Assembly: GCA_018821715.1 (NCBI GenBank)
Contig: JAHJLN010000118.1
Location: forward strand, 1-51,430
Length of the DNA stretch: 51,430 nucleotides
Source: Pseudomonadota bacterium
Lineage (GTDB): Bacteria > Desulfobacterota > Desulfobacteria > Desulfobacterales > Desulfobacteraceae
Direction of reading: 5' to 3'
Position numbers and translations under genes: made by a program. The notes beneath the pieces were generated by a model. The model saw nothing but the letters and a program-made list of their open reading frames with translations. It searched no databases and was not told the DNA's origin. This document shows, piece by piece, positions 14,211 to 20,133 of this stretch (positions within the stretch are counted from its first letter, which is position 1; the number at the start of each line of letters is the position of its first letter).

Positions 14211-15239
14211 TTAACCCTCACTTAAAACGACCTGATTTACAGGAATGGTTTCATCCAGCCGGATTGAAAACACCAATTCAGGATACTGCAAGTCAAGTTT
14301 TTTTAAATTCATATTCTTGTTACCCCTCAGTCGGGATTCTGATTTTGGATGAACACATAAGACCATTCTCCTGGTCACTGACAGGTCCCGGTATTGATCA
14401 ATTTTACTGCAGGCCGAGTCGTATAATATTTCAGAAAACACAAGATGACCAAAAGCCGGATGCCAGGGGCCGGCAAGCACCATTGATTTATCTTCCATCA
14501 TGTCCGATGCCTGTAGTCCCATGCGAACGACAGTGACATTGGCTGTCCTGAATATATGAACCATTTTTTTAACCAGCCGGATACTCTTTTCAAGGCTCAA
14601 CGGCTGATATTTTCCCTGGTAATACCAGTGTTCCATCAGACTGCCTTTTAACACCATCAAGGGATAAATTCTTGCAAAATCAGGTGCAAGTTGTGCCACT
14701 TTTTTTGTACTTTCAAATAACAACTCCTCATTATCCCCTGGTAATCCCACCATGACCTGGACACCGATTCTGAAAGAATAATCTTTCAACAGGCGGATGG
14801 CGTTTATTGTGTCCATACTGGTATGACCCCTTTTTGATGTTAAAAGAACTTCATCAGTCATGGACTGGACACCCAGTTCAATGGTAGATATATTGCAGGA
14901 TCTGATCATATCAAGCGACTTAGCGGTGATGGTATCCGGTCGAGTGGAAAACCGTATGGCATCAATCTTATTTGCATGAATATAGGGTTGGGCAAGATCC
15001 AGCAGGTGGCGTATGTTTTCACAGGACTGTCCCAAAAAATTTCCGCCAAAAAAGGCAAGCTCCACTGGTTCTCTTTTGCCTTTATAGTGTAAATACTGAT
15101 TTACAATTTGATCAAGACCTTCCTTATCCGGCAGTCTTGCTTTTTGATTGGTAATAATGGCCTGGTTACAGAAGGCACAGTGATGGGGGCACCCTGAATG
15201 GGGGATAAAAACGGGGATTACAAGGGGTTTTTTATCCAT
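14211..15239 (-). CDS. Elp3-like radical SAM protein
   Basis: A 342-residue radical SAM enzyme. The cluster motif is CPHHCAFC (C17, C21 and C24), followed by FGGNFLG and a TIM-barrel with RFSTRPD, TIELGVQSM and GVQVMVGLPGD, the hallmarks of the Elp3/oxygen-independent coproporphyrinogen-like branch. The C-terminus lacks the acetyltransferase domain of true Elp3. The function of this short family is not settled; an RNA-related role would fit the upstream RNase III fusion gene, from which it is separated by only 12 bases. It converges with the PBP gene. Confidence 0.88.
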   Translation of the reverse strand: MDKKPLVIPVFIPHSGCPHHCAFCNQAIITNQKARLPDKEGLDQIVNQYLHYKGKREPVELAFFGGNFLGQSCENIRHLLDLAQPYIHANKIDAIRFSTRPDTITAKSLDMIRSCNISTIELGVQSMTDEVLLTSKRGHTSMDTINAIRLLKDYSFRIGVQVMVGLPGDNEELLFESTKKVAQLAPDFARIYPLMVLKGSLMEHWYYQGKYQPLSLEKSIRLVKKMVHIFRTANVTVVRMGLQASDMMEDKSMVLAGPWHPAFGHLVFSEILYDSACSKIDQYRDLSVTRRMVLCVHPKSESRLRGNKNMNLKKLDLQYPELVFSIRLDETIPVNQVVLSEG

Positions 15240-15251
15240 GAAAGGCGCCTG

Positions 15252-16814
15252 TCAGGGATTTATTTTTTTAAGAATCTTTAAGGCTTTTCTTGCAGAATCC
15301 TGTTCTGCTGCTTTTTTTGTTTTTCCCAGACCTTTGGAGTCAATATCAAAAAGGCTCAAACTGATCTCAAAGGTTTTATCATGATCAGGTCCTATCTCTT
15401 TGAGCACTTCATATTGAGGGGTTATAGCACCACGCTCCTGGGCAATTTCCTGCAGCATGCTCTTATAATCAACAATCTTTTCATTAGACAGAATTTTTTC
15501 AAGGCTTTGGCTGAAAAGATCTTGGACCAGCCGGTATGCTTTTTCAAACCCTGCGTCCAGATAAACAGCGGCAATAACTGCTTCAAAAGCATCTGACAGG
15601 ATAGAGTTTTTATCACATCCACGGGAAAGCGCTTCTCCCTTTCCAAGCCGGATAAACCTGCCAAGATCAATGGATCGTGCCATATCGGCAAGCGCCGGCT
15701 CACTGACCAGATTGGATCTTAGCTTTGAAAGCTGTCCCTCTTTTTTTGAAGGACTTTTTTCCATCAACAGATGTCCGATGCAAAGCCCTAAGACCGCATC
15801 TCCCAAAAACTCAAGCCGTTCATTATCTGAAATGCAGGAGTCCTGGTTTTCATTTAAATAGGACCTGTGACACATGGCATTACTCAAAAAGGATCTATCT
15901 TTAAATGAATAACCTATATTGGTTTCAAGGATGCATAAATCAACGGCCTTTTCTTTAATGCTCTCCAACCGGGTGTTTAATTTCTTAACTATTGAATATT
16001 CAATGTTTAAATTGTCTTTGCCCCTTCCCAGATGAACCCCTTCATTAAACGATCCATGAAAGTCTGAACCACCCGTAGCAACCAGATTCTTTGTGTCACT
16101 AAGTTGTTGAAAAAAGGATGTCATTGAAGCATCATGGTCGGTATAATAAACCTCAATGCCTTCCAGGCCATAGGTGATAAGGGTATCAATAAATTTTTCC
16201 AGCTGATGGCTTTGTGTAACGGTCAACAGACCCGGATGTGCCAGGACAGGGAGCCCGCCGGCTTGCAGAATCGTTTGAATTGCTGTCTGGCAACTGACTT
16301 TATATTTGTCCACATATGCAGGCTTGCCTTTGCCAAGATACTTGTCAAAGGCTTGTCTGAAAGTTTCTACATATCCCTGTTCCTTCATGAATTCTGCAAT
16401 ATGGGGGCGGCCTGTCTGCTTGGCTTCAAACCGTTTTTCAACCTGTTCAATAGTGATATTGAATCCAAGGTTGTTTAATTTTTCTATGATTTTCGGATTT
16501 CTTTGGGCCCGGGCCTTTTTTGCATCATCAAGAATCGTGTTAAGACCTTTATCATAAACACTGAACCCATATCCCAGAAGATGAATACTTCCAAGGTCTT
16601 TAAATTCATATGGCGGCTCACAACTGATTTCAACGCCGGTAATAAATTCAGGGGATGCGGGTAAGGGCTGTTTTAAGATTTCCTTGATACCGTATAACGT
16701 ATCATGATCGGTTATGGAAATGACCATGACTCCGGCTTCTTTTGCCAGCGTCAAAATTTCCAAAGGAGAAAATGACCCGTCTGAAGCACTTGAATGTATG
16801 TGAAGATCAATCAA
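15252..16814 (-). CDS. rnc: PHP-domain phosphoesterase (RNase AM/YciV-like) fused to ribonuclease III
   Basis: A single 520-residue frame with two full enzymes. Residues ~1-285 are a PHP phosphoesterase: DLHIHSSASDG, SITDHDT, GVEIS, LAHPG and GGSDFHG supply the expected metal ligands, and PHIAEFMKEQGY...FDKYLGKGKPAYV resembles E. coli YciV (RNase AM, a 5'-3' exonuclease that matures rRNA 5' ends). Residues ~295-520 are RNase III: NERLEFLGDAVLG signature, second catalytic segment SDAFEAVIAAVYLD, and a complete dsRNA-binding domain. The join (RLESIKEKAVDLCILETN) has no stop. The start is TTG at 16814: no ATG or GTG lies between it and the dksA stop. It is coupled between dksA-like and radical SAM genes. 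Confidence 0.92.
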   Translation of the reverse strand: MIDLHIHSSASDGSFSPLEILTLAKEAGVMVISITDHDTLYGIKEILKQPLPASPEFITGVEISCEPPYEFKDLGSIHLLGYGFSVYDKGLNTILDDAKKARAQRNPKIIEKLNNLGFNITIEQVEKRFEAKQTGRPHIAEFMKEQGYVETFRQAFDKYLGKGKPAYVDKYKVSCQTAIQTILQAGGLPVLAHPGLLTVTQSHQLEKFIDTLITYGLEGIEVYYTDHDASMTSFFQQLSDTKNLVATGGSDFHGSFNEGVHLGRGKDNLNIEYSIVKKLNTRLESIKEKAVDLCILETNIGYSFKDRSFLSNAMCHRSYLNENQDSCISDNERLEFLGDAVLGLCIGHLLMEKSPSKKEGQLSKLRSNLVSEPALADMARSIDLGRFIRLGKGEALSRGCDKNSILSDAFEAVIAAVYLDAGFEKAYRLVQDLFSQSLEKILSNEKIVDYKSMLQEIAQERGAITPQYEVLKEIGPDHDKTFEISLSLFDIDSKGLGKTKKAAEQDSARKALKILKKINP

Positions 16815-16832
16815 TGAACTATCATGCGCAGG

Positions 16833-17195
16833 CTAAATGCCAAGAGCCTTCTCCATATCCTCTTCACGTGTTTTACAGTCAATGCACTGGGTGGTGACAG
16901 GTCTTGCCTTGAGCCGGTTGATAGAGATGTCTTCTTCACACCCCTCACATATTCCAAATGTCCCGTTTTCAACACGCACAAGCGCATTTTTAATTTTCTT
17001 GATCAATTTGTGTTCACGGTCCCGAATACGAAGCTCAAAACTTCTATCAGCTTCATGGGAGGCCCTGTCTGTTGGATCGGCAAAATTCTCTTTTGGCTTT
17101 GTCATGCCGGTTACGGTACTGTCAGCATGGGAAATCAACTCAGTAAGCCTTTCACTCAAAAGATTCTTAAAAAATTCCAAATCTTCTTTTTTCAT
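16833..17195 (-). CDS. dksA: DksA/TraR-type zinc-finger regulator
   Basis: A 120-residue DksA-family protein: an N-terminal coiled-coil helix pair with acidic tip region (ENFADPTDRASHEADRS) and a C-terminal four-cysteine zinc finger, CEGC...CIDC. By family it binds in the RNA polymerase secondary channel and, with ppGpp, controls rRNA and amino-acid promoters; other family members differ, so the exact role is inferred. It starts the operon that continues into the PHP-RNase III gene 18 bases downstream. Confidence 0.93.
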   Translation of the reverse strand: MKKEDLEFFKNLLSERLTELISHADSTVTGMTKPKENFADPTDRASHEADRSFELRIRDREHKLIKKIKNALVRVENGTFGICEGCEEDISINRLKARPVTTQCIDCKTREEDMEKALGI

Positions 17196-17320: not shown

Positions 17321-18598
17321 CTATTTTTCTTCTGGAATATCTATATTGAATAATTGGCGGGTGACATTCAGATAAAGAGAATCATCCCTGTGGTCACCTG
17401 TATTGCGTAAAAAAAGGATGGGGTCATGAATGGTTCGACTTGCAATGGCCTGGGTCATGCGTTTGATCGCCTCAATATCTTCTTTTGAAAGGTGTTTTAA
17501 ACTTGAAAGGGTCTTGTTGCACTCGATCTCAACGATGGAAGACATTTTATCGTTCAATGCCTTAATGGTGGGAACGATGGCAAGGCTTTCCAGCCATTTC
17601 CGAAATTTTACCACTGCTTCTTCAATATATCTTTCAGCCTTGATCGTCTCTTTTCCCCGTTGCTCAATGTTTGACTCGACAATATTTTTCAAATCATCGA
17701 TATCATAGACATAGGCATTGGAAATTGAGTTGATTTGTGGGTCAATATCCCTTGGAACGGCGATATCAATAAAAAAAAGCGTCTGGTGGTGCCGTTTTTT
17801 CATGGCCCGTTTGACCTGATCCCGGGTCAGCACATACTCGGTTGCACCGGTTGAGCTGATGATAATATCAACGTCTTTTAACGCATCTTCCCTTTCCTCA
17901 AACTTGACCGCCTGTCCGTTAAATTTCCGGGCAAGTTCCACTGCATTCTTAAAGGTTCTGTTTGCCACTATAATCTGCTTTACTTTATTGGATATCAGGT
18001 GTTCCACAGCCAGCTCCGCCATTTCACCGGCACCCAGCAGCAGGACCGTTTTCTGGGATAAATCTGAAAAAATCTTATTGGCAAGTTCAATGGCCGCATA
18101 GCTTATGGAAACTGCATTATCCCCGATTCCTGTCTCTTTTCTGACTTTTTTTGCAACGGAAAAACTTTTGTGCATCAACCGATTCAGCAACACGCCCGAG
18201 GCATTATTTTCCACAGCAATCCTGTAGGCCTGCTTTATCTGGCCCAGGATCTGGGGCTCGCCCACCACCATTGAATCCAGGCTTGAGGCAACCTTGAACA
18301 GATGCAGAACCGCGTCATCATCTTTATAAGTATATAAGGCATCCTTAAACTCGGATACGGCAACATTTTTATGCCGTGACACAAACTCAATCATTTTATT
18401 AACCTGTTCGCCTGTTTCAGGAATGTATAAAATTTCCGTCCGGTTACAGGTGGAAAACACAAGGCTTTCCTTAATGTCTTTATCCTGCTTTAAAAATTCA
18501 AGGGCAGTCACGATCTCTTCACTTGAAAAAGACAGTTTTTCCCTGAGTTCAACAGGTGCGGTTTTATGGTTTGCGCCGATTAATATGATTTTTGACAT
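17321..18598 (-). CDS. hemA: glutamyl-tRNA reductase
   Basis: A 425-residue enzyme of the C5 pathway that reduces glutamyl-tRNA to glutamate-1-semialdehyde for tetrapyrrole synthesis. The N-terminal domain has GANHKTAP and the nucleophilic Cys in STCNRTEI; VVGEPQILGQIKQAY is the substrate region; the NADPH domain carries LLGAGEMAELA and ANRT; a dimerisation helix ends the chain. Last of a three-gene operon with the CcsA-like and siroheme genes, 30 bases after the former. Confidence 0.96.
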   Translation of the reverse strand: MSKIILIGANHKTAPVELREKLSFSSEEIVTALEFLKQDKDIKESLVFSTCNRTEILYIPETGEQVNKMIEFVSRHKNVAVSEFKDALYTYKDDDAVLHLFKVASSLDSMVVGEPQILGQIKQAYRIAVENNASGVLLNRLMHKSFSVAKKVRKETGIGDNAVSISYAAIELANKIFSDLSQKTVLLLGAGEMAELAVEHLISNKVKQIIVANRTFKNAVELARKFNGQAVKFEEREDALKDVDIIISSTGATEYVLTRDQVKRAMKKRHHQTLFFIDIAVPRDIDPQINSISNAYVYDIDDLKNIVESNIEQRGKETIKAERYIEEAVVKFRKWLESLAIVPTIKALNDKMSSIVEIECNKTLSSLKHLSKEDIEAIKRMTQAIASRTIHDPILFLRNTGDHRDDSLYLNVTRQLFNIDIPEEK

Positions 18599-18628
18599 TG
18601 TTCTTTCTTTATGTTGCTCTTTTTTTTC

Positions 18629-19462
18629 TTATTTTGTAAAGGCTTGATGATGACCACCCAACAGCATGTTGACGCCAAGAAATGTAAAAATAATGATAAA
18701 AAATCCAATAATGGTCATGATGGCCGATTTTCGGCCCCGCCATCCAGAATAAAGGCGCAGGTGCAATAAGGCGGCATACACTATCCATGATCCCACAGAA
18801 AAAATTTCTTTTGGATCTCCACTCCAGAACCTTCCCCAGATAGTCTTTGCATAGACAAACCCGGTCACAAGTCCGATGGTCAGCAAGACAAAGCCCGTGG
18901 TCAGACAGGTATATCCCACATTATCCAGAAGATCCAGTGAAGGGAGCCGTTTAAAAAAGAACCCCTGATGTTTTGTCTTAATTCCCTTTTCCTGCAGCAG
19001 GTACAAGATCCCTGCACCGCATGCCAGGGCAAGGGATGCCTCACCTGTAAACACCATGAGGATGTGAGAATAAAACCAGAATCCCTTTAAAACCGTATTC
19101 TGTTCAATGGGGGTTGCAGGAATTATCCATACTGCCAGCATGATGGCCGATAACAGCATTGATGCAAATACGCCGAGAATTTTAAGATCAAATTTATATT
19201 GAAAAAATAAAAACATGCCGCCCAGTGCAAGCGCTGCCACTGATAAGCTCTGGGATAAATTGTGTACCGGCACCTGCCGTGTTGTTATGGTATACACGAT
19301 GATACTGATGCAATGGAACAAAATAGCGGTTGATATCAGGCAAAGGGCTGTTTTCTGATAAATTTTCTTCTGGTTAAATAAAAACAATACATACCCTGCC
19401 ATGCTGACAATATAGAACACCGTGGCAATCTGCAGCACCATGTCCGCTGTTTGAAGATTCAT
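18629..19462 (-). CDS. ccsA: CcsA/HemX-like cytochrome c assembly family membrane protein
   Basis: A 277-residue protein with eight hydrophobic segments and a tryptophan-rich loop, IWGRFWSGDPKE, which is the WWD-type haem-handling motif of the CcsA/CcmC/CcmF family. Conserved histidines occur in flanking segments. Placement between siroheme-synthase and hemA genes is the arrangement often labelled HemX or CcsA; the role may be haem delivery for c-type cytochromes or control of HemA, and sequence alone cannot decide. Its ATG overlaps the preceding stop (ATGA). Confidence 0.85.
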   Translation of the reverse strand: MNLQTADMVLQIATVFYIVSMAGYVLFLFNQKKIYQKTALCLISTAILFHCISIIVYTITTRQVPVHNLSQSLSVAALALGGMFLFFQYKFDLKILGVFASMLLSAIMLAVWIIPATPIEQNTVLKGFWFYSHILMVFTGEASLALACGAGILYLLQEKGIKTKHQGFFFKRLPSLDLLDNVGYTCLTTGFVLLTIGLVTGFVYAKTIWGRFWSGDPKEIFSVGSWIVYAALLHLRLYSGWRGRKSAIMTIIGFFIIIFTFLGVNMLLGGHHQAFTK

Positions 19463-20133
19463 TCATCACTCCCTGTAGAAACAAGATCCTGATATTGATA
19501 TTCTTTTCCAAGAACATCCTGCAGGACTGCGTTTATTTTGATGTCATCATTTGCCCGGATCAATCCAAGAAGCCCCTTTTCAATCAGTGCATAAAATATC
19601 TTTTTATGGTCATCCGGTGCATGGCCCGATGACAGCAGCCGTTTGCGTATGGTCCCCATTAACGCTAAAAATTGCGCATACTCAGGTCCAAAATGCTTCT
19701 CAAGATCCTGCCTGATTTTCTTTGCCATGGCAGGACTTGACCCGGAGGTTGAAATTGCCACGATCAACTCTTTTCTGTCCACTATGGACGGAAGGACAAA
19801 ATCACTATTCTCCGGTGCATCCGCCACATTGCAAAGGATATTGAGAGCGGCTGCATCTTTTTTGATCTGCGCGTTGAGATCAGCATTATGGGTGGCAGCA
19901 AAAACAAGAAACCTGCCCTCTGCATCTTCTTTTTCATAGGATTTTATTTTAATACAGACCGCACCCTGTTTTAGCCCTTCAACCGAAGGAGAATGGCGAT
20001 CACTGATAAGGGTTACGCTTGCACCACATTTTTCAAGGGTTTCAGCCTTTCTTGCGCCCACCGGACCACCGCCCACAACAAGGCAGTCTTTGTCCTTTAC
20101 ATCCAGAAATATGGGGTAATATTTCATTGGCAC
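19459..20133 (-). CDS. precorrin-2 dehydrogenase / sirohydrochlorin ferrochelatase (CysG N-terminal type)
   Basis: A 224-residue Met8p/CysG-N-type protein that oxidises precorrin-2 with NAD+ and may insert iron to make siroheme. The N-terminus reads YPIFLDVKDKDCLVVGGGPVGARKAETL, with a GxGxxG-type dinucleotide site, and STSGSSPAMAKKIRQDLE is the family signature. Siroheme is needed by sulfite reductases and, in sulfate reducers, is a precursor of haem (established for the siroheme-dependent pathway). First gene of the operon leading into hemA. Confidence 0.93.
   Translation of the reverse strand: MPMKYYPIFLDVKDKDCLVVGGGPVGARKAETLEKCGASVTLISDRHSPSVEGLKQGAVCIKIKSYEKEDAEGRFLVFAATHNADLNAQIKKDAAALNILCNVADAPENSDFVLPSIVDRKELIVAISTSGSSPAMAKKIRQDLEKHFGPEYAQFLALMGTIRKRLLSSGHAPDDHKKIFYALIEKGLLGLIRANDDIKINAVLQDVLGKEYQYQDLVSTGSDE

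What the first reader, a model, noticed from the sequence alone, without database searches (positions are those of the whole stretch)
15252..16814. PHP phosphoesterase (RNase AM-like) fused to RNase III in one chain
One uninterrupted 520-codon frame encodes a complete PHP domain with all expected metal-ligand motifs and a complete RNase III with dsRNA-binding domain. E. coli YciV (RNase AM) is a PHP-family 5'-3' exonuclease that trims rRNA 5' ends after endonucleolytic cuts, and RNase III makes the first cuts in pre-rRNA. The fusion therefore suggests a single protein that cuts and trims pre-rRNA. Family assignment of the PHP half to RNase AM is by eye; activity is inference.
Basis: partly seen in the sequence, partly recalled or inferred. 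Interest (0 to 1): 0.8.

Follow-up and report, generated by a model that had tools for sequence, protein, structure and literature searches.

The report
PHP exonuclease–RNase III fusion in sulfate reducers
In one family of sulfate-reducing bacteria the enzyme that makes the first cuts in double-stranded RNA is one protein with a second enzyme of a type known to trim 5' ends, in an operon shared by most of their order; what the fused protein does has not been tested.

Summary
It is no assembly artefact: 21 of 23 genomes of the genus carry it full length; two are cut by contig ends. It is the only RNase III found in the genome. In 140 loci, one per genus of the order, php and rnc are fused in 24 and adjacent in 103; a quick tree needs at least 12 changes, with one fused clade for the window's family. 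Fusion is concentrated at this junction: the even closer dksA-php pair is fused in 0 of 126 loci, rnc-rSAM in at most 1 of 111. All eight metal ligands and four 5'-phosphate/base-binding residues reported for E. coli RNase AM are identical in 25 of 25 fused proteins. The label "RNase AM" is only partly right: RNase AM and NPP form their own clade, the fusion scores far below both curated cut-offs, and a phosphate-contacting arginine is replaced. Pre-rRNA cut-and-trim is plausible and untested; one lineage has lost the PHP half. I found no report of this fusion.

The parts
15252..16814 (-). php-rnc fusion gene, 520 aa, TTG start 18 nt after the dksA stop
   Evidence: non-ATG start (TTG or GTG) in 11 of 12 fused genus representatives of the family, ATG in the other
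15996..16814 (-). PHP phosphoesterase half, residues 1-273; metal ligands H5 D12 H37 E62 H78 H193 D251 H253 (plus H7); 5'-phosphate/base residues R102 R105 R136 F156
   Evidence: residue roles from PMC9410882 section 20
15930..15995 (-). linker, residues 274-295: helix 274-290, two-residue break, then the first RNase III helix (293-300); no conserved internal start codon seen
15486..15929 (-). RNase III nuclease domain, residues 296-443; signature NERLEFLGDAVL, acidic residues E335 D339 D408 E411
15261..15470 (-). double-stranded RNA-binding domain, residues 449-518
16833..17195 (-). dksA, directly upstream; conserved operon partner (found in 126 of 127 php-rnc loci, within 50 nt in 124)
14211..15239 (-). 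radical SAM protein (Radical_SAM plus Radical_SAM_C) directly downstream; conserved operon partner (seen in 111 of 127 loci with 300 bases of downstream flank held)

Best explanation
A bifunctional ribonuclease. The RNase III half (expected dimer) cuts double-stranded RNA such as the pre-rRNA leader-trailer helices and leaves 5'-monophosphate ends; the PHP half is a three-metal, 5'-phosphate-recognising phosphoesterase, most likely a 5'-3' exonuclease that trims those ends or short products, so that cut and trim are held in one molecule. Shown: one frame, conservation, recurrent fusion, intact active sites, confident fold, operon. Inferred: both catalytic activities, the RNA substrates, and any hand-over between the two sites.
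Against: The RNase AM pocket residues are equally present in NPP and in 23 of 23 stand-alone PHPs of the phylum, so they do not prove exonuclease activity. Arg201 of RNase AM is Leu, Ile or Ser here. The first Glu of the RNase III signature (E332) is Gln in 5 of 25 fused proteins against 2 of 103 adjacent ones. One genus inside the fused clade has lost the PHP half and keeps a plain 233-residue RNase III. Where php and rnc are apart, php stays with dksA (4 of 4). The linker is the least constrained part (pN/pS 0.31-0.43). RNase J and RNase E/G are also encoded, so the PHP half is not the only candidate for 5' trimming.
Confidence: 0.5

Rival explanations
1. The PHP half is an NPP-like small-molecule or nano-RNA enzyme (pAp to AMP, or degradation of very short oligos) that clears end products of RNA decay; fusion to RNase III gives co-expression and location, not pre-rRNA trimming.
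For: Best NCBIfam match of the PHP half is NPP, 176.5 bits against 159.3 for RNase AM; best PDB sequence match is CV1693 (2yb1), E 1.5e-28; all pocket residues are shared with NPP.
Against: Also far below the NPP cut-off of 400 bits, and outside the NPP/RNase AM clade; RNase AM itself is proposed to use the same pocket for 5'-P RNA (PMC9410882).
Confidence: 0.27
2. Neutral by-product of operon structure: two tightly spaced neighbours in a dksA-php-rnc-rSAM operon repeatedly lose the stop between them; the halves work independently.
For: Adjacency is common and tight (72 of 103 gaps at most 50 nt with a guessed rnc start); 32 of 103 adjacent pairs are in the same frame, so few changes could fuse them; displaced php copies stay with dksA rather than rnc; PHP half lost once; weakly constrained linker.
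Against: The even tighter dksA-php pair (124 of 126 within 50 nt) is never fused and rnc-rSAM at most once, though frame and tolerance of the partners differ; the fusion has been kept in 12 of 13 genera of the window's family that have an rnc in the sample.
Confidence: 0.2
3. Assembly or sequencing artefact, or internal initiation gives a separate RNase III.
For: Weak internal start candidates exist, for example TTG at residue 283 of the window protein without a Shine-Dalgarno, and differ from locus to locus. Eight of the 12 fused genera outside the window's family rest on one genome each among those seen.
Against: The same frame in 21 of 23 genomes of the genus, including a single-contig genome; no internal start position shared by the 24 fused loci, judged by eye on the list.
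Confidence: 0.03

Closest known systems
E. coli RNase AM (YciV/TrpH/Rnm; PDB 7ug9) and V. cholerae RNase AM (9etk)
   Same: Fold, eight metal ligands, 5'-phosphate arginines and stacking Phe (residues compared with the E. coli enzyme)
   Different: Stand-alone; separate clade; Arg201 replaced by Leu; profile score 159.3 against a cut-off of 375
3',5'-nucleoside bisphosphate phosphatase NPP (CV1693; PDB 2yb1)
   Same: Same fold and pocket; slightly best profile score
   Different: Stand-alone; separate clade; score 176.5 against a cut-off of 400
Bacterial class I RNase III (rnc; TIGR02191)
   Same: Nuclease domain plus dsRBD, catalytic acids, score over the curated cut-off
   Different: Carries an N-terminal PHP domain in the same chain
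Stand-alone php directly upstream of rnc in other genera of the same order
   Same: Same two genes, same order, same dksA and rSAM neighbours
   Different: Two proteins instead of one

Membership tests
Bacterial RNase III (class I) | Score above the curated TIGR02191 cut-off | tested here: met
   239.7 bits against 166.25
Bacterial RNase III (class I) | Catalytic acidic residues and dsRBD present | tested here: met
   E335 D339 D408 E411 in 25 of 25 fused (their catalytic role is recalled); E332 is Gln in 5 of 25; dsrm 450-515
Bacterial RNase III (class I) | dsRNA cleavage as a homodimer | not testable with these tools
   no assay, no multimer prediction
PHP superfamily | PHP fold with three-metal ligand set | tested here: met
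RNase AM (YciV) | Score above the curated NF047791 cut-off | tested here: not met
   159.3 bits against 375
RNase AM (YciV) | Groups with RNase AM in a tree | tested here: not met
   7ug9 + 9etk + NPP form a 100/100 clade without the Desulfobacterota PHPs
RNase AM (YciV) | 5'-P pocket R107 R110 R141 and stacking F161 | tested here: met
   R102 R105 R136 F156, 25 of 25 fused; not discriminating, also in NPP and 23 of 23 phylum PHPs
RNase AM (YciV) | Arg201 salt bridge to the sulfate/phosphate | tested here: not met
   Leu 21, Ile 2, Ser 2 of 25 fused
RNase AM (YciV) | 5'-3' exoribonuclease activity on 5'-monophosphate RNA | not testable with these tools
   needs an assay
NPP (CV1693) | Score above the curated NF041577 cut-off | tested here: not met
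   176.5 bits against 400
NPP (CV1693) | pAp phosphatase activity | not testable with these tools
   needs an assay

The most novel reading that the evidence does not exclude
A single-chain bacterial RNA-maturation enzyme in which an RNase III dimer passes its 5'-monophosphate products to tethered three-metal 5'-3' exonuclease sites, encoded with the rRNA-transcription regulator DksA in a ribosome-biogenesis operon and fused independently about ten or more times in one order.
Probability: 0.3. Interest if true: 0.75.

Novelty: new variant of a known kind. Interest (0 to 1): 0.55.

Why it matters
If the halves work together, this joins the first cut and the 5' trim of structured RNA in one enzyme. 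The recurrent fusion, the adjacency in the order and the dksA linkage would tie the RNase AM/NPP-type PHP proteins to RNase III and ribosome biogenesis far from the gammaproteobacteria in which RNase AM was described. The order offers natural comparisons: fused, adjacent, separated and PHP-less relatives.

Tried and rejected
Artefact (missed stop, frameshift, chimera): rejected for the window's genus by 21 of 23 genomes, the other two cut by contig ends. Separate rnc elsewhere: none found. Separate RNase AM in this genome: none over the cut-off; the second PHP protein (P0002) scores about 90 bits against the RNase AM model and, in the alignment, lacks two of the four pocket residues. Internal translation start: no shared candidate (by eye). 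Mobile or phage origin: PHROGs gives an unnamed family over the RNase III half and one weak match over the PHP half; no plasmid record covers 80% of the protein (0 of the 83 records with a match). Pre-rRNA of the window's own genome: no 16S found in this assembly, so a complete genome of the genus was used; the first 23S pairing estimate took in the 23S tail and was within the shuffles (-83.4 against a mean of -77.5), and was redone with the 3' end placed by a sequence string that I chose. A first residue count picked up only 3 of the 23 phylum PHPs, one apparently in a wrong frame; redone with all 23. A search for the fusion outside the phylum could not be run. The class sample (147 genomes) held only genomes of the same order, so the linkage may reach class level. 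Papers: searches gave no paper; two listed papers on other matters or on RNase AM alone; 17 (315 papers, 20 listed) and 50 (1,252 papers, 10 listed) were capped and nothing listed concerned a PHP-RNase III fusion, by title and start of abstract; one gave one paper (protein CoAlation), of which I saw the listing and the start of the abstract.

Rows dropped before counts: of 150 genera (one genome each), 8 had no RNase III match; of the 142 with a match, G109 (fragment) and G166 (53% complete, left out to fit the batches) were not fetched, leaving 140. Alignment A1 holds the genome G245 twice (L011, L080). The gene-order controls use the 127 fused or adjacent loci only. Rows read through with X at a stop: L095, L182 and L183 (RNase III part), and any stop in the PHP stretches.

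Full report

IS IT REAL. Of 23 genomes of the genus examined, 20 carry the full frame without a stop, one ends four residues earlier at a TAA, and two are cut by contig ends. Of 17 loci found in named GTDB contigs, 10 are titled Desulfobacula; contig lengths shared with G-handle contigs (for example 59,214 bases) suggest that the genus code g1 is Desulfobacula. The genome holds one RNase III place, this one. The gene is under purifying selection, pN/pS 0.21-0.24 overall and 0.31-0.43 in the linker, against six relatives. No internal start position is shared by the fused loci (by eye).

HOW WIDESPREAD. I took one genome for each of 150 genera of the order. RNase III was found in 142 and 140 regions were fetched. 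In these php lies upstream of rnc on the same strand in 103, is fused to it in 24, and was not found upstream in 13, of which 6 are cut by a contig end (one of the 6, L159, still shows 36 residues of PHP at the cut). Of the remaining 7, four have a close php elsewhere, each beside dksA, and three have no close homologue. The fused loci are 12 genera of the window's family and 12 genera of nine other families. Of those last 12 genera, four show the single frame in two or more genomes of the cut list (g64, g80, g124, g136) and eight in one genome each among those seen. In genus g132 one listed genome is fused (G321) while the representative is adjacent (L197). On a quick tree of 128 rows the fused/adjacent label needs at least 12 changes, and the family's fusions form one clade with SH-aLRT 100; many other branches are weak and the count cannot tell gain from loss, so independent fusion is the reading I prefer because adjacency is the common state. 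In the phylum sample of 198 genomes, 21 genomes from outside the order have both a PHP and an RNase III hit in the cut list, and by my reading of that list the two lie apart in all 21; 0 of 23 PHP loci from outside the order have dksA, rnc or the rSAM gene within the 1.5 kb held.

THE OPERON. dksA was found upstream in 126 of 127 php-rnc loci (24 of 24 fused, 102 of 103 adjacent), within 50 nt in 124, and the radical SAM gene downstream in 111 of 127, with only 300 bases of flank held. With a guessed rnc start codon, the php-rnc gaps have a median of 14 nt and 72 of 103 are at most 50 nt. As a control for chance fusion inside an operon I examined the neighbouring junctions in the same loci: dksA-php is fused in 0 of 126, and rnc-rSAM in 1 of 111, that one (L095) with an internal stop in my reading of its RNase III and therefore doubtful. 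Fusion is thus concentrated at php-rnc. The control is imperfect: frames and structural tolerance differ between the pairs, and only 9 of 126 dksA-php pairs are in one frame, against 32 of 103 adjacent php-rnc pairs.

WHAT THE PHP HALF IS. PMC9410882, section 20 (read whole; other passages), gives the E. coli RNase AM metal ligands (His13, Asp20, His45, Glu72, His83, His198, Asp255, His257), the 5'-phosphate pocket (Arg107, Arg110, Arg141), the stacking Phe161, and Arg201, which contacts the sulfate in the phosphate position. All but the last are identical in 25 of 25 fused proteins (24 loci plus the window), in all but one or two of 103 adjacent ones (gaps included), and in 23 of 23 stand-alone PHPs of the phylum; Arg201 is Leu in 21, Ile in 2 and Ser in 2 of the 25. 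The same residues occur in NPP, so they point to a 5'-phosphonucleotide enzyme but not to which substrate. In a careful tree 28 of the 29 rows of the order's php-rnc loci form a clade (98/93; the fragment L143, 13% filled, falls outside), while both RNase AMs and NPP form another (100/100) on a long branch; four long rows (L143, L003, 3e0f, L131) are of unsure place. The PHP half is therefore a relative of RNase AM and NPP and not shown to be an orthologue of either.

THE RNASE III HALF. E335, D339, D408 and E411 are kept in 25 of 25 fused proteins; E332, the first Glu of the signature, is Gln in 5 of 25 fused and 2 of 103 adjacent ones; D408 varies only among the adjacent ones (82 Asp, 18 Asn, 3 Gly).

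SUBSTRATE. The window's assembly has no 16S match. In the complete genome G245 of the same genus the 16S leader and trailer pair at -49.2 kcal/mol against -30.5 +/- 4.3 for 200 shuffles, and the 23S leader and trailer at -80.6 against -45.8 +/- 5.2. The shuffles were simple mononucleotide ones, and the 23S ends were placed by the 5.8S-like match and by a sequence string. These are the expected RNase III substrates; nothing here shows that the PHP half acts on them. RNase E/G (504.9 bits) and RNase J (595.3 bits) are also encoded. E. coli RNase AM is named among the enzymes that process the 23S helix in PMC10250234 (passages), which cites Jain 2020; that paper was not held.

RESULTS AGAINST. 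Genus g5 of the window's family (G269, locus L090) has hemA, dksA, then a plain 233-residue RNase III and the rSAM gene, with no PHP half; its RNase III falls inside the fused clade of the family (100/98), and the genome (88% complete) has no close php. The simplest reading is loss of the PHP half after fusion, so the RNase III half can do without it. Where php and rnc are separated, php remains with dksA, which could mean that php's older partnership is with dksA.

VERDICT. A real, conserved and apparently unreported domain fusion of two known enzyme types. The cut-and-trim mechanism is the best reading at about even odds. The RNase AM label should be reduced to 'RNase AM/NPP-like PHP'. That a PHP-RNase III fusion is not in print rests on searches of one open-access library (17 and 50 capped) and on nothing wider. 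The catalytic role of the RNase III acidic residues and general statements on RNase III dimers, its 5'-monophosphate products and DksA are recalled.

Noticed in passing
window 14211-17195, minus strand; L080-L219: Order-wide operon dksA-php-rnc-rSAM, with dksA upstream in 126 of 127 php-rnc loci and a near-constant dksA-php gap (median 14 nt to the PHP match start).
   Followed up: yes
window 16812-16814 and relatives: Non-ATG start (TTG, sometimes GTG) of the fusion gene in 11 of 12 fused genus representatives of the family, close behind the dksA stop, which suggests translational coupling.
   Followed up: partly
L090 (G269:C76:5629-8315): A genus nested inside the fused clade has no PHP half: dksA is followed directly by a 233-residue RNase III.
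   Followed up: yes
L003 (G000:C40:20938-21753): A second, distant PHP protein of the genome, similar to NPP and RNase AM at about 90-95 bits but lacking two of the four pocket residues (those matching R110 and F161).
   Followed up: partly
window 17321-20133, minus strand: hemA lies upstream of dksA, followed upstream by a 277-residue membrane-type protein and a 224-residue protein that looks like a siroheme-type dehydrogenase (both by eye).
   Followed up: no
L087 (G035) PHP half, columns 212-257 of alignment A1: Insertion of about 46 residues shortly after the AHPG motif in one genus of the family.
   Followed up: no
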